Origin: a virus
DNA: 22,578 bases
Direction: 5' to 3' (one strand)
IMG/VR virus record: IMGVR_UViG_3300013101_000112
Span: 1 to 22,578 of that record
Numbering within the stretch: position 1 is the stretch's first letter; each line of letters opens with the position of its first letter. Both the position numbers and the translations under genes were made by a program. This document shows, in pieces, positions 1 through 6,041 of this stretch. The notes below the pieces were generated by a model. That model was not told the origin of the DNA and did no database searches. It worked only from the letters and a program-made list of their open reading frames with translations.

Positions 1-116
1 AGGAACTTGGCGGACTGAAAGCTGCCCTCACCGATGGCCGCGCTTACCGCCTCAGCGATCTTGAGCGTCATCTTCAGAGCGGCCCGTCGGCCCGTCTCGT
101 ACTTGTTGCGTTTCAT
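1..116 (-). CDS. Small hypothetical protein, C-terminus cut by window edge
   Basis: Reading leftward from an ATG at 116, the frame is open to the window edge and begins MKRNKYETGRRAALKM. It is lysine/arginine-rich at the N-terminus and then alanine-rich and probably helical. The start is well supported: GAAGGAG lies 6 nt upstream, and a strong leftward promoter (-10 at 135-140) would give a very short leader of roughly a dozen bases. It is the first gene downstream of the leftmost visible promoter-operator unit. No family is recognised and the function is unknown. Length and any further domains cannot be judged because the gene is truncated by the window. Confidence 0.75.
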   Translation of the reverse strand, partial: MKRNKYETGRRAALKMTLKIAEAVSAAIGEGSFQSAKF

Positions 117-134
117 GTTCACTCCTTCACCTAC

Positions 135-162
135 ATGATACACCGGATGGTGTACGTGTCAA
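135..162 (-). promoter_or_regulatory. Leftward promoter P1 with embedded operator palindrome
   Basis: On the minus strand a perfect -35 TTGACA (157-162) and a -10 TATCAT (135-140) are separated by 16 nt. The spacer and -10 contain the palindrome TACACC-N4-GGTGTA (139-154, central GGAT on the plus strand). The stop codon of the upstream gene (159-161) lies inside the -35. It would drive the gene ending at the window edge. Confidence 0.85.
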
Positions 163-566
163 GCTGAGGCGCGTGCCATTTCCAGACCCCGAAGCAAGTC
201 GCCCCAACGCTTGGTCTGTAGTAGTGCCTTGTTCAGATCGAATAACTCGATCCGTCCCGCTGCTACCAGCTCGTCTCCGTTGTTCAACGTGACGTCGATC
301 TCCTTGCCGTCGAACTCGATCCACGCGTGGTGAATCGGAATGTATCCATAGAGCATCAGATGCCCCTCGACGTACACGACTCGGCCCTCGTGCTCAGTGC
401 CTCGCGAGGCGAGCACGAGCTTCGCAGCGTTCTCGAAACACGCTTTCATCTTCGGCACGAAACGGCCCTTGCGGAACAGATCCTTGATCGCTTGCGGGTG
501 GTGTGCCCATTTCACTGGGCACCATCCTTGCTTGCGGAACAGCTCGATCTTCTTGTCGGTGGTCAT
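159..566 (-). CDS. Hypothetical phage protein (135 aa)
   Basis: This 135-residue soluble protein has a basic N-terminal third and a central block with the motifs CFENA, VVYVEGHL and IPIHHAWIEFDGKEIDVT. That block looks like a small family often seen in phages and plasmids, in which a Cys, a His-Ala-Trp and a following Asp are conserved. I do not know its biochemical role. The Cys-Asn, His and Asp arrangement could suggest a papain-like fold, but this is inference. The ATG at 566 overlaps the TGA of the upstream gene (ATGA), so translation is probably coupled. Its TGA lies within the -35 of promoter P1. It is the last gene of the three-gene P2 unit. Confidence 0.8.
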   Translation of the reverse strand: MTTDKKIELFRKQGWCPVKWAHHPQAIKDLFRKGRFVPKMKACFENAAKLVLASRGTEHEGRVVYVEGHLMLYGYIPIHHAWIEFDGKEIDVTLNNGDELVAAGRIELFDLNKALLQTKRWGDLLRGLEMARASA

Positions 567-778
567 GCCTTCACCGCGCTCATGCCCCGCTTGACCTCAG
601 CCCACTGGTCCTGATTCAGCCACTTGCCGTCGACGTCCCACCGGAGCTGGGTCTTGATCTTGTATCCCTTGACGCCCTTGTCGGCGTAGACCCAACCGGC
701 GATGTTCACACCGGCCATGTACGGGCTGCCCTCGAAGTGGTAGCTGTCACTCTGACTCCATTGAAAAACAAACTCCAT
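563..778 (-). CDS. Small hypothetical protein (71 aa)
   Basis: A 71-residue protein starting MEFVFQWSQSDSYHFEG and rich in aromatic residues (several Trp and Tyr), with no membrane segment and no Cys. The ATG at 778 was chosen over upstream codons because GAGAGGAG lies 6 nt before it and because a longer form would read back through the neighbouring 37-aa gene and the promoter. It overlaps the next gene by 4 nt (ATGA), so the pair is translationally coupled. It is the second gene of the P2 unit. No family is recognised; the compact, Trp-rich beta-strand-like sequence could be a small binding protein, but no function can be given. Confidence 0.75.
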   Translation of the reverse strand: MEFVFQWSQSDSYHFEGSPYMAGVNIAGWVYADKGVKGYKIKTQLRWDVDGKWLNQDQWAEVKRGMSAVKA

Positions 779-789
779 CGTATCTCCTC

Positions 790-903
790 TCAGTCCCAGT
801 CCGGGAACATTGCGTCTTCGTGCATGTCGTCCATGCAGGCCTCGCAGTCCTCGCCATCGGTCTCGCAACCGCAGCCCTCGCACATCCAAACCTTGTCGCT
901 CAT
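790..903 (-). CDS. Cys-rich acidic miniprotein, zinc-ribbon-like (37 aa)
   Basis: A 37-residue acidic protein beginning MSDKVWMCEGCGCETDGE. Five cysteines occur as CxxCxC followed by CxxC, a spacing that fits a small metal-binding knuckle. The remainder is rich in Asp, Glu and Met. The start at 903 is supported by an ACGGAG Shine-Dalgarno within the conserved leader box (909-921) and by promoter P2 upstream. It is the first gene of the P2 unit, 11 nt before the 71-aa gene. Metal binding is inferred from Cys spacing only. Such miniproteins in phage early regions often bind host proteins, but nothing in the sequence identifies a partner. Confidence 0.65.
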   Translation of the reverse strand: MSDKVWMCEGCGCETDGEDCEACMDDMHEDAMFPDWD

Positions 904-946
904 GGGAACTCCGTTCTGCCGGGCGGGCTCTCCGCCCGACATACTC
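904..946 (-). promoter_or_regulatory. Structured leader with conserved box (P2 unit)
   Basis: The untranslated leader between the P2 -10 and the 37-aa gene contains a 7-bp GC stem (920-926 with 932-938) and a 5-nt loop. It is followed at once by the box CGGCAGAACGGAG (minus strand, 909-921) that includes the Shine-Dalgarno. The same box and a hairpin in the same place recur in the P5 and P6 leaders. Confidence 0.6.
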
Positions 947-975
947 ATTATACACCGGGCGGTGTACAGGGTCCA
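947..975 (-). promoter_or_regulatory. Leftward promoter P2 with operator palindrome, weak -35
   Basis: The -10 is a perfect TATAAT (947-952). The operator TACACC-N4-GGTGTA is at 951-966 with central GGGC. The -35 is poor: TGGACC at 970-975 with a 17-nt spacer is the best match. A 16-bp perfect palindrome around GTTTAAAC lies just upstream (985-1000). It drives the three genes at 903-159. Confidence 0.75.
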
Positions 976-984
976 GTAGGTGCG

Positions 985-1000
985 GACCGTTTAAACGGTC
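985..1000. promoter_or_regulatory. GTTTAAAC site 1 within 16-bp perfect palindrome
   Basis: GACCGTTTAAACGGTC is a perfect 16-bp palindrome whose core (989-996) is one of nine dispersed GTTTA(A/C)AC sites. It touches the TAG of the 145-aa gene and lies upstream of the weak P2 -35. No T-run follows on either strand, so an intrinsic terminator is unlikely and a protein-binding site is favoured. Confidence 0.6.
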
Positions 1001-1437
1001 TAGTCTCCAATCCCGTAGCCGCCGATCTCGAAGATCGCCACCTCATCGGTGCGCTCGATCCACTTCGGTCGGCAGTAGTTTCCGGGCTTCATCGCGAAGG
1101 CTTTCGCGAGACGATCACCGATCGTCTTGAAGTGCTCCGGCTCAAGGCCGTCGCTCGTGATGCGGAACCCGAACGAGTTGTGGTAGCTGTGCATCTCGCT
1201 CCAGCTCTCGTAGCTCACCCGACCGTGTCCGACGTATTCCCCGGAGTCGTGCGGCATCTTCTTGCCTTCCGGCTCCTGCGCTCCCTTGCTCTTGAGCAAG
1301 TCGACGATCTCAAGGATCTTGCGCGCCGCGCCCGTGAAGTTGACGTCGGTCAGCTCGCGCTCGACGGTGGGGCAAGCGGTGCCGCCGGACCATCGAATCT
1401 TGACGAGCTTCTCGAAGCTCTTGTATTTGTGATCCAT
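1000..1437 (-). CDS. Hypothetical protein (145 aa)
   Basis: A 145-residue soluble protein beginning MDHKYKSFEKLVKIRW and ending in a Gly-rich IGGYGIGD tail. It contains a predicted helix around KILEIVDLLKSKGAQEPEGKK and a His/Tyr/Ser-rich middle (SYESWSEMHSYHNSFGFRI). The ATG at 1437 was chosen because GAGAGGA lies just upstream and promoter P3 ends about 20 nt before it. Earlier in-frame starts would fall inside the promoter. It is a single-gene unit, and its TAG meets the GTTTAAAC palindrome. No family is recognised and the function is unknown. Confidence 0.75.
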   Translation of the reverse strand: MDHKYKSFEKLVKIRWSGGTACPTVERELTDVNFTGAARKILEIVDLLKSKGAQEPEGKKMPHDSGEYVGHGRVSYESWSEMHSYHNSFGFRITSDGLEPEHFKTIGDRLAKAFAMKPGNYCRPKWIERTDEVAIFEIGGYGIGD

Positions 1438-1459
1438 ATGTGTCCTCTCTTTCACCTTC

Positions 1460-1487
1460 ATCATACACCGGATGGTGTACAGGTCAA
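1460..1487 (-). promoter_or_regulatory. Leftward promoter P3 with embedded operator palindrome
   Basis: Minus strand -35 TTGACC (1482-1487), 16-nt spacer, -10 TATGAT (1460-1465). The perfect operator palindrome TACACC-N4-GGTGTA is at 1464-1479 with central GGAT, the same centre as P1. It drives the 145-aa gene through a short leader without the conserved hairpin. Confidence 0.85.
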
Positions 1488-1502
1488 GGTTTGGCGGCAC
1501 CG

Positions 1503-1742
1503 CTACGATGCGAATGGCGCGAGTTCGATTTCATTCTCAGGCGTGAGAATGTGATCCTCCCCGAGCATGTGGATGAACAGCGTCCCCGCGTTCGAGAACT
1601 GCCAGCACATGACCCGGCGCCAGATGCCACTACCTTCGAGCTGTACCAGCATGCGCGTCGGGGCACCCGATCGCTTCGAGTACCCGTCCGCGGTCACGCC
1701 GTAGCGCGGGACGTCCGTGGTTCGTACGTTCGTGATCTTCAT
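1503..1742 (-). CDS. Hypothetical protein (79 aa)
   Basis: A 79-residue protein beginning MKITNVRTTDVPRYGVTADGYSKRSG. It has alternating hydrophobic strands (TRMLVQLEG, RRVMCWQF, GTLFIHM) that suggest a small beta-barrel. The ATG at 1742 overlaps the TGA of the 97-aa gene by 4 nt, which argues for this start over the much longer upstream frame running antisense to other genes. GAAGGGA lies farther upstream. It is the last gene of the four-gene P4 unit and ends 15 nt before the P3 -35. No family is recognised. Confidence 0.75.
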   Translation of the reverse strand: MKITNVRTTDVPRYGVTADGYSKRSGAPTRMLVQLEGSGIWRRVMCWQFSNAGTLFIHMLGEDHILTPENEIELAPFAS

Positions 1743-2032
1743 GCGTAGCTCGTTCCCTTCTGAGGTGTGCCGTCCCACACGTACGCGCTTCCGTGCGCGA
1801 TTTTGACGTACGGGTCGCCTCGATACTCCTTGATCCTGAAGCTCTTCGTGGGCCCGACCGGCACGAGCGGGATGCTCGGCGTAGCCGTGTAGGTCATGTC
1901 TCCGGTGGCTCGCTGGTCGACCTTCACCTTGGTGACAGTAACCATCTTCGGCGTGCGCTTCAGCACGATGTAGAAGTCGACGTTCGTTTGGTCGTACCCC
2001 CACTTGCTAACGAGTGTGTCTCCGTTGTTCAT
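1739..2032 (-). CDS. Hypothetical protein (97 aa)
   Basis: A 97-residue basic protein beginning MNNGDTLVSKWGYDQTNVDFYIVLKR. Its first half looks like a small beta domain in which a strand with 'DFYIVLKRTPKMVTVTKVK' alternates polar and hydrophobic residues, as in short phage proteins that carry an SH3-like or barrel fold. This is inference from the pattern. The ATG at 2032 is preferred over a GTG at 2041 because GAAGGG is 8 nt upstream of the ATG. It overlaps both neighbours by 4 nt (ATGA), so three genes in a row are coupled. Function unknown. Confidence 0.75.
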   Translation of the reverse strand: MNNGDTLVSKWGYDQTNVDFYIVLKRTPKMVTVTKVKVDQRATGDMTYTATPSIPLVPVGPTKSFRIKEYRGDPYVKIAHGSAYVWDGTPQKGTSYA

Positions 2033-2199
2033 CCTGTCCACCCTTCTGCGCGCAGTACGCGCTTCGCGATCTCAGTCGTTCCGGCCCCGCTCTCGTAAGC
2101 CTCGAAGTACGAGTAGTCAGCCAAGTCCGAGGAGTAGAGACCGCAGATGTCTTCGATCTTCTCGTCTACGTCCTTCATCCACTGTTTGAAACTCTTCAT
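2029..2199 (-). CDS. Small DUF5419-like phage protein (56 aa)
   Basis: A 56-residue protein beginning MKSFKQWMKDVDEKIEDICG. The pattern F-x2-WM-x2-VD near the N-terminus, then GLYSSDLADYSYFEAYESG, then a helix ending AKRVLRAEG matches my recollection of the small phage family DUF5419. The assignment is from memory of the pattern, not from a search. The family has no known biochemical role. AAGGAG lies 6 nt before the ATG at 2199. It overlaps the zinc-ribbon-like gene upstream and the 97-aa gene downstream by 4 nt each, inside the P4 unit. Confidence 0.7.
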   Translation of the reverse strand: MKSFKQWMKDVDEKIEDICGLYSSDLADYSYFEAYESGAGTTEIAKRVLRAEGWTG

Positions 2200-2372
2200 G
2201 CCTGCTCCTTCAGCTTCGCGATCTCATCGCGTATTTCCTTCTCGCGCTCTTCTCCGAGCACTGCCATCAGGGCGTTCGAGGAGAGGTTGTCCTCAAGAAC
2301 TCCCAGGTAGCACGGGTCACACAGGACTCCGTTTGCCGCGGCGATTCCGCAGCGTCCGCATGTCATCTTCAT
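2196..2372 (-). CDS. Zinc-ribbon-like small protein (58 aa)
   Basis: A 58-residue protein beginning MKMTCGRCGIAAANGVLCDPC. Two CxxC pairs 9 residues apart (Cys5/Cys8 and Cys18/Cys21) form a probable zinc ribbon, followed by a charged helix ending EIRDEIAKLKEQA that could dimerise. The ATG at 2372 has GGAGG about 7 nt upstream; earlier in-frame starts fall inside promoter P4. It is the first gene of the four-gene P4 unit, and its stop overlaps the next start (ATGA). DNA or protein binding is plausible for this architecture, but no specific function is supported. Confidence 0.75.
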   Translation of the reverse strand: MKMTCGRCGIAAANGVLCDPCYLGVLEDNLSSNALMAVLGEEREKEIRDEIAKLKEQA

Positions 2373-2394
2373 CGTGTGTCCTCCGTTCGCATTC

Positions 2395-2422
2395 ATCATA
2401 CACCGGGTGGTGTACATGTCAA
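2395..2422 (-). promoter_or_regulatory. Leftward promoter P4 with embedded operator palindrome
   Basis: Minus strand -35 TTGACA (2417-2422), 16-nt spacer, -10 TATGAT (2395-2400). The perfect operator TACACC-N4-GGTGTA is at 2399-2414 with central GGGT. The -35 starts 2 nt after the stop codon of the 63-aa gene. It drives the four overlapping genes 2372-1503. Confidence 0.87.
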
Positions 2423-2423
2423 G

Positions 2424-2615
2424 TTATGCGCCACCGTTCTGCTCTGCAAGATCCCGCATAGCCATCGCGAACTTGATCGGATTGTGCGGGGCGGTAGGCA
2501 TGAATCCGCCCATCTTGATCCAATGAATCAGACTCGTGGCTCGCTCGTGCAGCACGCTCATCTCGTCATCGAGCACGGCTTCGATCATCTCTTGCACTGT
2601 TACATTAGGATCCAT
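2424..2615 (-). CDS. Small hypothetical protein (63 aa)
   Basis: A 63-residue mostly helical protein beginning MDPNVTVQEMIEAVLDDEMSVL and continuing through HERATSLIHWIKMGGF to an amphipathic C-terminal helix. No Cys pairs or membrane segments are seen. GGAGG precedes the ATG at 2615 by about 5 nt. The start overlaps the TAA of the 110-aa gene (TAATG), so the two genes of the P5 unit are coupled. The acidic N-terminal helix and short length resemble many phage early proteins of unknown role; no family is recognised. Confidence 0.78.
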   Translation of the reverse strand: MDPNVTVQEMIEAVLDDEMSVLHERATSLIHWIKMGGFMPTAPHNPIKFAMAMRDLAEQNGGA

Positions 2616-2947
2616 TACGCCTCCACATCTTCGAGCGCCTGCTCGACTTCACCCAGGTACTTGTAGAGCATCACGGTCTCGCCGGTTGCCAGCGCGAACT
2701 CCAGCTCTGCCTTGAGCTTCGCGAAGATGTCGCTTGCGTTCTCTACGTGCCCCATCTGCTCGATCATCGAGTCGCGATCGGCGCGAGCATCGGATAGCTC
2801 GTCGTCCAAATGGATCAGCTCTTCGCCCATCTTGCCAACGGCATCGTGAACATCACGGTTGCCCTTGAGGATTGCGATCGCTGTCTCTTCGCTTGCCCCA
2901 ACGATGGAACAGGCTTTCTCGATTTCGTATCCGTATTCCTTGTGCAT
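2615..2947 (-). CDS. Hypothetical helical protein (110 aa)
   Basis: A 110-residue acidic, almost entirely helical protein beginning MHKEYGYEIEKACSIVGASE. Residues from about 35 to 105 carry heptad-like runs (EELIHLDDELSDARADRDSM, then FAKLKAELEFAL) suggesting a coiled coil. The start at 2947 has an ACGGAG Shine-Dalgarno in the conserved leader box (2953-2965). It is the first gene of the P5 unit and its TAA overlaps the following ATG. A role as an oligomeric binding protein is possible, but nothing shows the partner. No family is recognised. Confidence 0.78.
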   Translation of the reverse strand: MHKEYGYEIEKACSIVGASEETAIAILKGNRDVHDAVGKMGEELIHLDDELSDARADRDSMIEQMGHVENASDIFAKLKAELEFALATGETVMLYKYLGEVEQALEDVEA

Positions 2948-2993
2948 TTACACTCCGTTCTGCCGGACAGGCTCTCGCCCACCCGACGCTTCC
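2948..2993 (-). promoter_or_regulatory. Structured leader with conserved box (P5 unit)
   Basis: The leader RNA can form a 9-bp stem (2964-2972 with 2977-2985, three G-U pairs) closed by a GAGA loop of GNRA type. It is followed directly by the box CGGCAGAACGGAG (minus strand, 2953-2965). The G-U pairs and changed bases relative to the P2 leader keep the fold while altering sequence, which hints at conserved structure. Confidence 0.6.
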
Positions 2994-3022
2994 ATTGTAC
3001 ACCGGTTGGTGCATAGTGCCGA
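2994..3022 (-). promoter_or_regulatory. Leftward promoter P5, degenerate copy
   Basis: The -10 is TACAAT (2994-2999). The palindrome is imperfect: TACACC-N4-GGTGCA at 2998-3013 on the plus strand, central GGTT. The best -35 is TCGGCA (3017-3022, 17-nt spacer). A GTTTACAC site begins 2 nt beyond it. It is the weakest of the six promoters and would drive the 110-aa and 63-aa genes. Confidence 0.65.
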
Positions 3023-3023
3023 C

Positions 3024-3031
3024 GTTTACAC
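3024..3031 (+). promoter_or_regulatory. GTTTACAC site 2
   Basis: CGTTTACACGG sits between the weak -35 of P5 and the upstream gene, and covers that gene's stop codon (3026-3028). It is one of nine exact dispersed copies and one of only two at leftward gene junctions. Confidence 0.55.
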
Positions 3032-3274
3032 GGGGTTACTTCCGTGCCCGCATGGGCACCCCTTCTGGCAGGGCGAGACAGCGAGGTTCAGCATCTCGCA
3101 CATTTCCTTGATCGAGTATTCGTGCAAGCCGTGGACTTGGCTGTTGGGCTCCATCTGGAATCCGTCCTTGAGATTGGCCCACCATCCGTCGTTACCTTCG
3201 TTCCGGACGTCTCCTTCGATACGCGGGTCGGCATTGATGTCAGCTTTCGTGCGTGCCTTCCTGTACTTGGTCAT
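3026..3274 (-). CDS. Small phage protein with Trp-Trp and Cys-Cys motifs (82 aa)
   Basis: An 82-residue protein beginning MTKYRKARTKADINADPRIE. Its middle reads DGWWANLKDGFQMEP, then HGLHEYSIKEM, and the C-terminus has a Cys cluster (CxxGCPCG). The order 'WW-x-LK-x-GF, HGLHE, Cys cluster' resembles a small protein common in actinobacterial phages, recalled from pattern and not from a search. The Cys residues may bind a metal. The ATG at 3274 has CGGAGAG upstream within the conserved leader box, and earlier in-frame starts fall in the leader or promoter. It is the only gene of the P6 unit, adjacent to the divergent late operon. Confidence 0.75.
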   Translation of the reverse strand: MTKYRKARTKADINADPRIEGDVRNEGNDGWWANLKDGFQMEPNSQVHGLHEYSIKEMCEMLNLAVSPCQKGCPCGHGSNPV

Positions 3275-3313
3275 TCGCTCTCCGTTCTGCCGGGAACTTC
3301 CCCCGACAGATCC
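3275..3313 (-). promoter_or_regulatory. Structured leader with conserved box (P6 unit)
   Basis: The third copy of the box CGGCAGAACGGAG (minus strand, 3280-3292) again lies next to a hairpin. Here the stem is shorter (3291-3294 with 3302-3305, extendable by G-U pairs). The box supplies the Shine-Dalgarno of the 82-aa gene. Confidence 0.55.
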
Positions 3314-3341
3314 ATTATACACCGAATGGTGTACATGTCAA
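3314..3341 (-). promoter_or_regulatory. Leftward promoter P6, consensus -35 and -10 with operator
   Basis: Both hexamers are perfect: TTGACA (3336-3341) and TATAAT (3314-3319), with a 16-nt spacer. The palindrome TACACC-N4-GGTGTA (3318-3333, central GAAT) is perfect. It lies in the divergent gap between the leftward genes and the rightward late operon; no clear plus-strand promoter is seen in the same gap. Confidence 0.9.
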
Positions 3342-3381
3342 GTTCTGGCAGGGAGTACCTCTGGCGGGGTAGACTGGCGCG

Positions 3382-4221
3382 ATGCCTGACACAGCCGAAG
3401 AACTCGAAGCACTCGCGTCCAAGTACGCCGGTGACATGAACAAGGCCGTGCGGCGCGTGATCGCTTCGGTCGGCAAACCGCGCATGGAGAAGTCGGTCAA
3501 GCTCCTAGAGTCAGAGCTGGCCGAAGTCATGGGGCGAGCCCACATGGCCGGGCGCGTGTCCGTGCTCCGTACGGTGGCGAGCGCAGCACCGGGCGTGCTG
3601 GCGGCGAAGGGGATCCCGAAGACAGCGGTAGCCGTGACGCGCATGTCGACGCGTGAGCTGCTCAGGCGCGTCCCTATGGTCGCGGAGTCTGCCATGGACG
3701 TCACTCGCCTGATCGAGCAAGGCGCGTTCACAGCGGCGCGTGCGTCGACACAGAGCATCGTCCAGCGAGTACAGCTCGTCATCGCTGACTCCCTAGAGCA
3801 AGGCCAGCCGACGCCAGATACCTCTGCCTTGTTGGCCGACACGGAAGCATGGTCTCGTGCCTACAGCGAGAACGTTGTTCGCACGACACAGTCGCGTGCG
3901 TACGACGACGGCGCGGTGACGATGACGTCGAACCCCGCCGTGCGGGTAGTCGTCCCCGCGTTTCGGTTCGATGCGACACGAGACTCGAACGTTCGACCAA
4001 ACCATTGGGCAGCGCACGGGTTCATCGCGGCAGTCGACTCGCCCGAGTGGTTACGCCGCGGGTTGATACCTCCGCTTGGATTCCAGTGTCGATGCGTGCG
4101 CTCATTCGTGACTCGCTCGAAGCTCAAGCGCATGGGGTTGATCGACAAGAATGGGCGCGTCATCACGCACCGGCCGCGAAGCATCAACGCCGCCGGACCC
4201 GACCAAGGGTTCACGCAATGA
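3382..4221 (+). CDS. MuF-like minor head (head morphogenesis) protein
   Basis: A 279-residue protein of the Mu gpF / SPP1 gp7 head morphogenesis family. The N-terminal two thirds is helical. The family signature lies at about residues 197-241: a DATRDSNVRPNHWAAHG segment, then PPLGFQCRCVRSF, matching the D-x-R-x(2)-H ... PP-x-G-x(2)-CRC pattern of MuF domains. These proteins bind the portal and enter the prohead in a few copies. The start is firm because an in-frame TAG lies 12 nt upstream. It overlaps the HTH gene by 4 nt. It opens the late operon here, although a portal gene normally precedes it. It is shorter than Mu gpF, and no C-terminal toxin domain is attached. Confidence 0.85.
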   Translation: MPDTAEELEALASKYAGDMNKAVRRVIASVGKPRMEKSVKLLESELAEVMGRAHMAGRVSVLRTVASAAPGVLAAKGIPKTAVAVTRMSTRELLRRVPMVAESAMDVTRLIEQGAFTAARASTQSIVQRVQLVIADSLEQGQPTPDTSALLADTEAWSRAYSENVVRTTQSRAYDDGAVTMTSNPAVRVVVPAFRFDATRDSNVRPNHWAAHGFIAAVDSPEWLRRGLIPPLGFQCRCVRSFVTRSKLKRMGLIDKNGRVITHRPRSINAAGPDQGFTQ

Positions 4222-4403
4222 CTGACTTCAGGGAGAAGTTCCGCGAGGCGTACTCGGAGATGGGAGCATCCAAGCTCGCGGCTCGAATCGGCGTGGCCCG
4301 CAAGACCGTGTATCGCTGGGAGCAAGGCAGTACGCCGCCGCGCACCGCGCAAGAGCGAACGCTTCGCATCCTGAATGGGTCAGATGACACACGACGCAAG
4401 TGA
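4218..4403 (+). CDS. Small XRE-like helix-turn-helix protein (61 aa)
   Basis: A 61-residue protein beginning MTDFREKFREAYSEMGASK. The segment at about residues 17-37 (SKLAARIGVARKTVYRWEQG) is a clear helix-turn-helix of the XRE type: 'KLA..IGV.RKTVYRWE' with an SxPPR loop after the recognition helix. It has little beyond the HTH, so it would bind as a dimer or be an adaptor. The ATG at 4218 overlaps the MuF-like stop (ATGA) with AAGGG 8 nt upstream; a longer upstream frame is rejected because it runs antiparallel in phase to MuF coding sequence. Placement between head genes is unusual. It is a candidate binder for one of the two dispersed DNA site families, an inference only. Confidence 0.8.
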   Translation: MTDFREKFREAYSEMGASKLAARIGVARKTVYRWEQGSTPPRTAQERTLRILNGSDDTRRK

Positions 4404-4418
4404 TATGATGCGCGCCAC

Positions 4419-6041
4419 ATGTCAGTCGACGCAACAGCAACGATAGAGGCCACGGGCCTCGCCCCGAAGCGTAAGAATCTCGGACCCATCGTCGGTGGTC
4501 AGTTCCGACACGAGGTGAACGACGATGAGACTGTAACGATCTTCAACGTCCCGATCTTCGCCACGACCAAGCGCGGCGACTTCGACTACGATGACGCATG
4601 GATCGACGCGGCGATCGAGAACGCCGACAAGGAGTATCTCGACGGGCACTTGCCGCCGATGCACATGGGTCACTTCGACGATGAGCGCAATCCCAACCCG
4701 AGGGAGGTGGGCGCGTTTAAGATCCAGCGCAAGGGCACGATGATGCTCGGCGGCAAGCCGGTGCCGGTCATGTACGCCGACCTGTACGTGACCGACAGTG
4801 AAACGTTCGCGATGATTCAGTCGAAGCGTCTGCGCTATCGCTCGGTCGAGGCGAACTTCGACAAGCAACGCATCAGGTCGCTCGCGCTTCTCGACAGCGA
4901 GCCGCCGTTCCACAAGCTGCCAATGACCACCGTGTCAGATGACACAATCGAGATCCCGGATTCGCTTCCCGGCTCACTTGTAGTAGGGTTCTCGGAGTCG
5001 AAGCACTGCCAGCGAATCGCTCTGGAGTTTCCGCCGATGACCGTTACGAAGATCAAGTCGAACTGGATGGATGGACTCCAGATCGTTTCGTTCTCCGATG
5101 GCGAGGTTCGCGCCTACACGCCGTCCGGTCTTGACGAGCTGCGCGCCGAACGGCCCGAGTTGTTCGCAGAGGTGGAAGAGAGCGAGAACGAGCCCGGCGG
5201 TGAAGACAGTGGCGACGGTGCCGAGGCTGAGGACTTGATCGAAGAAGAGTCCGACAAGGCCGCCGAAGACGCCGCCGAAGAAGAGCCTGCCGAAGTCGAA
5301 GAGAAGATGGCCGACGAGATCAAGCCCGGCGAGACGTCCGAAGGCGACGACGAAGAATCCGCCGCGGAGTCCGACGACTTTGAAAAGAAGCCCGAAGGCG
5401 AAGAGGCGCAGATGGGGGCGATGGACGGCAAGTCTGACACCGTCAAGGCCATCGAAGCTCTGATCGATACACTTGGCGATGAGGCTGCGCTGAAAGCGAT
5501 TCAGGCCCTCATCGAGACGACCGTTGGTGAAGAGAACGGCATCCCCGAAGCGGGGGCCGAAGTACAGGGCGTGCCCGCGATCATGTCCGAAGGAGCTTCC
5601 ATGGATTCCGAGAAGATGAGCGAAATCATGGTCGAGAGCCGCACTCGCCTCGCGAACCTCGAAAAGTTCAAGGCCGACGTCATGAGTGAGCGCGCTGTGC
5701 GCGAAGCTGTTGCGTCTCTGTCCGGCCGGGTCACTGGCGAGGACATCGAGAGCGAGCTGGTCAAGTTCGCTGAAGAGCACGGCATCAAGGCCATGAAGAG
5801 CCATGCCGCTTCGCTCCGCAGCTCACTGCCCTCGATCAACGTCGAGGACAGCGAAGACAAGTTCGCGGAGGGCGGCGCAATGCGCAACGTTCCCGATGAA
5901 GTGGCGAAGTACCGGAGCAAGAGCCCCGAGCACTTCGAGGCGGCCTTCAAGGCCAATACACTGTTCGCTGATGGACGCTGTACGAGTCTCTCTCGTGAGC
6001 GTTTCATCGAGATCGAAGTCGACCGCGTGATCGGTTCGTAG
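4419..6041 (+). CDS. Mu I-like prohead protease fused in frame to scaffold
   Basis: A 540-residue protein in three parts. Residues 1-200 resemble the Mu gpI-type prohead protease, with candidate catalytic residues His82 or His85 (PPMHMGHF) and Ser142 (RLRYRSVEA), the positions expected from herpesvirus-like assembly proteases. Residues about 245-345 are a strongly acidic Glu/Asp/Ala/Pro linker. Residues about 395-540 are helical and charged, as in scaffolding proteins. A protease-scaffold fusion of this kind shapes and matures the prohead and is digested before packaging. No good Shine-Dalgarno precedes the ATG at 4419, 15 nt after the HTH gene, so initiation may be weak. An internal start at 5601 probably makes the scaffold alone. 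The catalytic residue assignment is inference from pattern. Confidence 0.85.
   Translation: MSVDATATIEATGLAPKRKNLGPIVGGQFRHEVNDDETVTIFNVPIFATTKRGDFDYDDAWIDAAIENADKEYLDGHLPPMHMGHFDDERNPNPREVGAFKIQRKGTMMLGGKPVPVMYADLYVTDSETFAMIQSKRLRYRSVEANFDKQRIRSLALLDSEPPFHKLPMTTVSDDTIEIPDSLPGSLVVGFSESKHCQRIALEFPPMTVTKIKSNWMDGLQIVSFSDGEVRAYTPSGLDELRAERPELFAEVEESENEPGGEDSGDGAEAEDLIEEESDKAAEDAAEEEPAEVEEKMADEIKPGETSEGDDEESAAESDDFEKKPEGEEAQMGAMDGKSDTVKAIEALIDTLGDEAALKAIQALIETTVGEENGIPEAGAEVQGVPAIMSEGASMDSEKMSEIMVESRTRLANLEKFKADVMSERAVREAVASLSGRVTGEDIESELVKFAEEHGIKAMKSHAASLRSSLPSINVEDSEDKFAEGGAMRNVPDEVAKYRSKSPEHFEAAFKANTLFADGRCTSLSRERFIEIEVDRVIGS
5601..6041 (+). CDS. Nested scaffold protein from internal in-frame start
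   Basis: An in-frame ATG at 5601 is preceded by GAAGGAG with 6 nt spacing, a far better ribosome site than that of the full-length gene. Translation would give a 146-residue product beginning MDSEKMSEIMVESRTRL, equal to residues 395-540 of the protease fusion. It is charged and mostly helical. The arrangement copies phage Mu I/Z and lambda C/Nu3, where an internal start makes many copies of scaffold and few of protease. The strong site inside an otherwise uninterrupted gene is seen directly; abundance and role are inferred. Confidence 0.75.
   Translation: MDSEKMSEIMVESRTRLANLEKFKADVMSERAVREAVASLSGRVTGEDIESELVKFAEEHGIKAMKSHAASLRSSLPSINVEDSEDKFAEGGAMRNVPDEVAKYRSKSPEHFEAAFKANTLFADGRCTSLSRERFIEIEVDRVIGS

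What the first reader, a model, noticed from the sequence alone, without database searches (positions are those of the whole stretch)
135..3341. Six leftward promoters share one operator palindrome built into the promoter
The palindrome TACACC-N4-GGTGTA occurs six times in 3.2 kb, always minus-strand, always at a gene junction. Each copy fills the 16-17 nt spacer and overlaps the -10. Five have perfect arms (139, 951, 1464, 2399, 3318) and one is degenerate (2998). Four have TTGACA or TTGACC as -35. The centre varies (GGAT, GGGC, GGAT, GGGT, GGTT, GAAT), so the arms are the conserved part. A repressor bound there would block RNA polymerase at all six units at once. No known operator with this arm is recalled. 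This looks like a phage-encoded regulon for early or lysogeny-state genes with unusually dense promoters.
Basis: partly seen in the sequence, partly recalled or inferred. Interest (0 to 1): 0.86.

Follow-up and report, generated by a model that had tools for sequence, protein, structure and literature searches.

The report
Shared repressor site in phage promoters
An uncultured phage seems to switch a whole block of small early genes on and off together, because six promoters each carry the same mirror-image landing site for one repressor protein; this is a clean new example of a known way that phages control their genes.

Summary
TACACC-N4-GGTGTA occurs six times (five exact, one with a single mismatch at 2998), all in the left 3.4 kb, all in non-coding gaps, all on near-consensus leftward sigma70-type promoters. 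Chance gives 0.32 matches at up to 2 mismatches. The six promoter-like sites of the region are exactly these six. The palindrome lies at about -26 to -11; the predicted +1 is G in 6 of 6.

Corrections: the centre is not free (plus-strand consensus GGnT). Leaders fall into two classes: three units (951, 2998, 3318) begin, at the predicted +1, with a stable hairpin followed by GGCAGAACGGAG; the other three have a bare 12-16 nt leader.

Best reading: operators for one dimeric repressor that blocks RNA polymerase at all six units. Elsewhere the same arms mostly sit at XRE (lambda-repressor-like) control regions, including two prophage OR/OL-like clusters, but once at an ArsR gene, so the binder's family is likely, not proven. 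The only regulator on this fragment is a 61-aa XRE protein in the structural operon (4218-4403). No relative of the phage was found, so conservation could not be tested.

It works like the dispersed operators of P1 or L5, but the site itself is new. Ordinary in kind.

The parts
3314..3341 (-). Promoter 1: TTGACA-16-TATAAT with operator TACACCATTCGGTGTA (3318-3333); predicted +1 G at 3307; drives the 82-aa gene 3026-3274
3289..3307 (-). Class B leader: 5'-terminal hairpin GUCGGGGGAAGUUCCCGGC starting at the predicted +1, then AGAACGGAG
   Evidence: -11.0 kcal/mol, z -2.06
2994..3022 (-). Promoter 2 (weakest): TCGGCA-17-TACAAT with operator TGCACCAACCGGTGTA (2998-3013, one mismatch); predicted +1 G at 2987; drives genes 2615-2947 and 2424-2615
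2962..2987 (-). Class B leader: 5'-terminal hairpin, 11 pairs with a GAGA loop, then AGAACGGAG
   Evidence: -16.8 kcal/mol, z -3.03
2395..2422 (-). Promoter 3: TTGACA-16-TATGAT with operator TACACCACCCGGTGTA (2399-2414); predicted +1 G at 2388; short leader; drives the genes between 1503 and 2372
1460..1487 (-). Promoter 4: TTGACC-16-TATGAT with operator TACACCATCCGGTGTA (1464-1479); predicted +1 G at 1453; short leader; drives gene 1000-1437
947..975 (-). Promoter 5: TGGACC-17-TATAAT with operator TACACCGCCCGGTGTA (951-966); predicted +1 G at 940; drives genes 790-903, 563-778 and 159-566
918..940 (-). Class B leader: 5'-terminal hairpin, 9 pairs, then AGAACGGAG
   Evidence: -19.6 kcal/mol, z -3.53
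135..162 (-). Promoter 6: TTGACA-16-TATCAT with operator TACACCATCCGGTGTA (139-154); predicted +1 G at 128; 12-nt leader; gene starts at 116 and runs off the left end of the record
1..3274 (-). Leftward block of about 12 small genes served by the six promoters; one encodes a DUF5419 protein (2029-2199). The six first genes all have a purine-rich Shine-Dalgarno-like sequence (GGAG, or GAGAGG at 1437) before the ATG
4218..4403 (+). 61-aa XRE-type HTH protein, start overlapping the stop of the Mu-F-like minor head gene (ATGA); the only DNA-binding regulator found on the fragment and a candidate, unproven, binder of the palindrome
   Evidence: HTH_31 E 4.8e-6, 27.2 bits against a cut-off of 27

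Best explanation
Six leftward sigma70-type promoters each carry one 16-bp operator, TACACC-N4-GGTGTA, placed at about -26 to -11 between the -35 and -10 boxes. A dimeric helix-turn-helix repressor, most likely of the XRE (lambda-repressor-like) family, binds with one subunit on each arm; the arm centres are 10 bp (about one helical turn) apart, on one face of the DNA. Bound there it excludes RNA polymerase, so one protein turns off the whole block of small leftward, presumably early, genes. When repressor is absent all six fire together; differences in -35 match, arm quality and leader grade their output. Shown here: sites, placement, promoter match, conserved +1, predicted leader hairpins. 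Inferred: that a protein binds, that it represses, that it is an XRE protein, and that the genes are early.
For: Copy number and placement far beyond chance. All operator arm positions are invariant except one base in one copy, including spacer positions that sigma70 does not constrain, while flanking sequence is not conserved. The same arms within consensus promoters or control regions elsewhere: upstream of an XRE gene in L008, L013 and L024 (one element type), upstream of hicA-hicB(XRE) in L025, and in two prophages as clusters of operator-like sites 22-27 bp apart between an XRE/CI-type gene and a YdaS-like gene (L007 3307/3329/3352; L011 7756/7778/7805), with a second pair in L007 at 7189/7211. 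The motif is rare in bacterial genomes (one exact site in each of three 3-5 Mb genomes; promoter-linked form in 2 of 398 and 2 of 47 genomes), so five exact copies in 3.2 kb is a strong local enrichment.
Against: No repressor was shown to bind. The record is a fragment, so the true repressor may be missing. The arm is not exclusive to XRE proteins: in L034 it lies just upstream of an ArsR-family gene and in L026 upstream of a ToxN-like gene. Conservation across related phages could not be tested. One viral contig (L027) that shares a single leftward gene (39% identity) has no such sites at up to 1 mismatch and only three scattered matches at 2 mismatches, fewer than its control.
Confidence: 0.7

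Rival explanations
1. Late shut-off in a lytic cycle: the 61-aa XRE protein encoded in the structural operon (4218-4403) binds the six operators and turns early genes off once structural genes are expressed, rather than keeping a lysogen silent.
For: It is the only HTH regulator found on the fragment, and its start overlaps the stop of the minor head gene, so it should be made with structural proteins. Isolated XRE genes elsewhere sit behind the same operator.
Against: Its own gene has no such operator; its recognition helix has no clear similarity to those of the XRE proteins found next to the same arms (read by eye); the structure model is weak (pLDDT 72.7, pTM 0.36); most of the genome is unseen.
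Confidence: 0.2
2. A host regulator binds the sites, so that the phage reads host state (SOS, stress or plasmid/TA control) through one operator.
For: The arms occur at host-borne loci such as hicAB (L025) and an ArsR gene (L034).
Against: The motif is very rare in the genomes searched, whereas a host global regulator would leave many sites; the host is unknown.
Confidence: 0.12
3. The six promoters are recent duplicates of one promoter and the palindrome is inherited without a regulator.
For: Extended similarity beyond the promoter is seen between 139 and 1464 (82% over 56 nt) and among the three class B leaders.
Against: Two leader classes and unlike flanks, yet near-invariant symmetric arms, in contrast to the free spacer base and the variable -10 and -35 positions; the arms recur in unrelated regulator promoters.
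Confidence: 0.08
4. The palindrome binds an activator of the MerR kind, or another factor that reshapes the promoter.
For: MerR-type sites also fill the spacer (established knowledge).
Against: Spacers are 16-17 bp, the normal sigma70 length, not the 19-20 bp that MerR activators correct, and the boxes are already near consensus.
Confidence: 0.04

Closest known systems
Phage P1 C1 repressor regulon
   Same: One phage repressor with many single operators spread over the genome (22 operators on P1; PMC8546580)
   Different: The P1 operator is a 17-bp asymmetric sequence (ATTGCTCTAATAAATTT); here it is a 16-bp palindrome fixed between -35 and -10 of every promoter
Cluster A mycobacteriophage operators/stoperators (L5 type)
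   Same: Repeated repressor sites in a leftward block of small genes; the TGTCAAG of the -35 side looks like the L5 stoperator core (resemblance recalled from memory); the DUF5419 gene here has relatives near the right end of cluster A genomes
   Different: Stoperators are 13-bp, asymmetric, bound by a monomer, and mostly not at promoters (PMC9283540, PMC6550527); here all six sites are palindromic and at promoters
Lambdoid OR/OL operators of XRE/CI repressors
   Same: Dimer-type palindromes with CACC/GGTG arms; identical arms found in OR/OL-like clusters of L007 and L011
   Different: Here each promoter has one isolated operator and no divergent cI/cro pair is present
Cluster K mycobacteriophage SAS/ESAS
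   Same: Repeated start-associated sequences, about half of them with an upstream inverted repeat, at many small non-structural genes (PMC3203893)
   Different: Different sequences; here the inverted repeat of the class B leaders is predicted as a 5'-terminal RNA hairpin, and a separate operator lies in the promoter

Membership tests
Dispersed-operator phage repressor regulon (P1 C1 kind) | Several copies of one site at separate promoters | tested here: met
Dispersed-operator phage repressor regulon (P1 C1 kind) | A single phage-encoded repressor binds them all | not testable with these tools
   Fragmentary genome; binding not measurable; only a candidate XRE gene found
Cluster A stoperator system | 13-bp asymmetric site | tested here: not met
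   The sites are 16-bp palindromes
Cluster A stoperator system | Most sites lie away from promoters | tested here: not met
   6 of 6 sites are within promoters
Lambdoid OR/OL switch | Clustered operators between divergent cI and cro genes | tested here: not met
   One isolated operator per promoter, no cI/cro pair in the record
Lambdoid OR/OL switch | Operator arms of the type read by an XRE dimer | tested here: inconclusive
   Same arms at XRE loci elsewhere, but also at an ArsR locus
MerR-type activated promoter | Palindrome in an over-long 19-20 bp spacer | tested here: not met
   Spacers are 16-17 bp
Cluster K SAS/ESAS | 13-bp GGGATAGGAGCCC at start codons | tested here: not met
   The conserved leader here is GGCAGAACGGAG in three of six units

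The most novel reading that the evidence does not exclude
A dispersed-operator system used for lytic timing rather than immunity: a 61-aa XRE protein, translationally coupled to a head gene, binds the spacer palindromes and shuts off six early promoters as structural genes come on, while a second layer, 5'-terminal hairpins in half of the transcripts, keeps some early mRNAs alive after shut-off.
Probability: 0.12. Interest if true: 0.55.

Novelty: new member of a known kind. Interest (0 to 1): 0.34.

Why it matters
It gives a testable regulon map (six promoters, predicted starts, one operator) for a phage lineage with no close relative in the collections searched. The operator can be used to look for its repressor and for the rest of the genome. 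Having the same operator in promoters with and without a 5'-terminal hairpin would allow transcriptional and mRNA-stability control to be separated in one system. The kind of control is already known from P1 and L5, so it is not a new principle.

Tried and rejected
Searches for relatives of the phage failed: megablast of the window in phages, IMG/VR scans with three structural-region proteins, a genome scan with the 712-aa protein, and tblastn of the 712-aa protein. A DNA scan for the class B leader elsewhere found nothing. The strict promoter-operator pattern in IMG/VR found nothing; the looser one gave 12 contigs, many with the palindrome at a site without promoter or intergenic context and probably chance. 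Short blastn of the consensus in phages and plasmids gave only weak matches. MW202577 (relative of one leftward protein) has no shared operator among its promoter-like sites. Rfam: no match. The structure model of the 61-aa XRE protein was too poor to use in a fold search, and sequence search of solved structures gave nothing significant. Literature search for TACACC operators found no named match among the papers listed. MerR-type and stoperator readings were rejected on spacer length and symmetry. Calls that returned errors and gave no data: 5, 17, 37-39, 42, 51, 72, 73, 80, 84, 86.

Full report
What is there. The record (22,578 bp, a virus record in IMG/VR) has a left block of about 12 small leftward genes (1-3274) and a right block of rightward genes that include a Mu-F-like minor head protein and a neck/tail-completion protein. 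TACACC-N4-GGTGTA occurs six times and only in the left block: exact at 139, 951, 1464, 2399 and 3318, and with one mismatch at 2998. Chance expectation at up to 2 mismatches is 0.32; none of 100 shuffles reached six. All six are in the 13% of that block that is non-coding.

Promoters. A blind scan for sigma70-type promoters in 1-4500 gave six hits, all leftward, all at these sites, against 1.3 expected. Aligned on the palindrome, three of the six -10 positions, the G that follows the box, and the base at the predicted +1 (G in 6 of 6) are invariant. The palindrome then spans about -26 to -11. Copy 2998 has both the worst -35 (TCGGCA) and the only imperfect arm.

Two kinds of leader. Units 3318, 2998 and 951 start, at the predicted +1, with GUCGGG...CCGGC hairpins of 7, 11 and 9 pairs (-11.0, -16.8, -19.6 kcal/mol; z -2.1, -3.0, -3.5) followed by AGAACGGAG, which carries the ribosome-binding site. 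Stem bases differ between the copies yet pair in each (read from the folds), which supports an RNA structure; with three copies this is suggestive only. The other three units have unstructured leaders of 12-16 nt. 5'-terminal stem-loops are known to stabilise mRNA (Emory et al. 1992, cited in PMC7509114), so the likely role is mRNA stability; this is inference.

What binds. A symmetric site with arm centres 10 bp apart, lying between -35 and -10, is what a dimeric HTH repressor needs to exclude RNA polymerase (established knowledge). To find the family, the promoter-plus-arm pattern was searched in viral and genome collections. Many matches look like chance. Those with promoter or intergenic context were: L008/L013/L024, directly upstream of a small XRE gene (one element type); L025, upstream of hicA-hicB with an XRE domain; L007 and L011, clusters of operator-like sites 22-27 bp apart between an XRE/CI-type gene and a YdaS-like gene, as in lambda OR, with a second pair in L007; L026, upstream of a ToxN-like gene, and L034, upstream of an ArsR-family gene; and L020-L022, upstream of a terminase small subunit gene. 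XRE is thus the commonest context but not the only one.

Candidate repressor. The one HTH gene found on the fragment is the 61-aa XRE protein at 4218-4403 (HTH_31, 27.2 bits against a 27-bit cut-off), whose start overlaps the stop of the minor head gene. It may be the binder, acting as a late shut-off factor, but the rest of the genome is unseen and a CI-like repressor elsewhere is more likely a priori.

Limits. No relative of the phage was found by DNA or by structural-region proteins, apart from the distant homology of the widespread minor head family. L027, which shares one leftward gene at 39% identity, has no such sites at up to 1 mismatch. Host, lifestyle and repressor are unknown.

Comparison. 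The arrangement works like the P1 C1 regulon (22 dispersed operators, PMC8546580) and in part like L5 operators/stoperators (PMC9283540, PMC6550527), but fails their defining site features (asymmetric 17-bp and 13-bp sites). The hairpin leaders resemble in concept the ESAS repeats of cluster K phages (PMC3203893). Verdict: real, well placed, functional-looking; a new member of a known kind.

Noticed in passing
window 3289-3307, 2962-2987, 918-940 (minus strand): Three of the six transcripts are predicted to begin at +1 with a 5'-terminal hairpin followed by a shared GGCAGAACGGAG leader; the other three are not.
   Followed up: partly
window 4218-4403 (plus strand): A 61-aa XRE-type regulator inside the rightward structural gene block, its start codon overlapping the stop of the minor head gene.
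   Followed up: partly
window 985-1000: Perfect 16-bp palindrome GACCGTTTAAACGGTC at the end of gene 1000-1437, just upstream of the 951 promoter's -35; role unknown.
   Followed up: no
L026 1679-1830: A ToxN-like (type III toxin-antitoxin) gene in a Clostridiales contig is preceded by a consensus promoter whose spacer holds the same palindrome TACACCTTATGGTGTA, suggesting repressor control of that locus.
   Followed up: no
L007 3307-3367 and 7189-7226: OR/OL-like arrays of TACACC-N4-GGTGTA-type sites in a prophage with XRE and YdaS-like genes.
   Followed up: partly
window 3274-3382: The first rightward gene at the divergent junction is the Mu-F-like minor head gene; no terminase or portal gene was seen upstream of it, and no rightward promoter was found there.
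   Followed up: no
L027 9107-9162 and 9922-9980: A different phage contig has two rightward promoters with a shared GTGTTA...GATCACGGCA promoter-leader motif, a similar repeated-promoter design without the palindrome.
   Followed up: no
window 2029-2199: DUF5419 protein whose phage relatives found here are all in cluster-A-like mycobacteriophage records, near their right ends.
   Followed up: no
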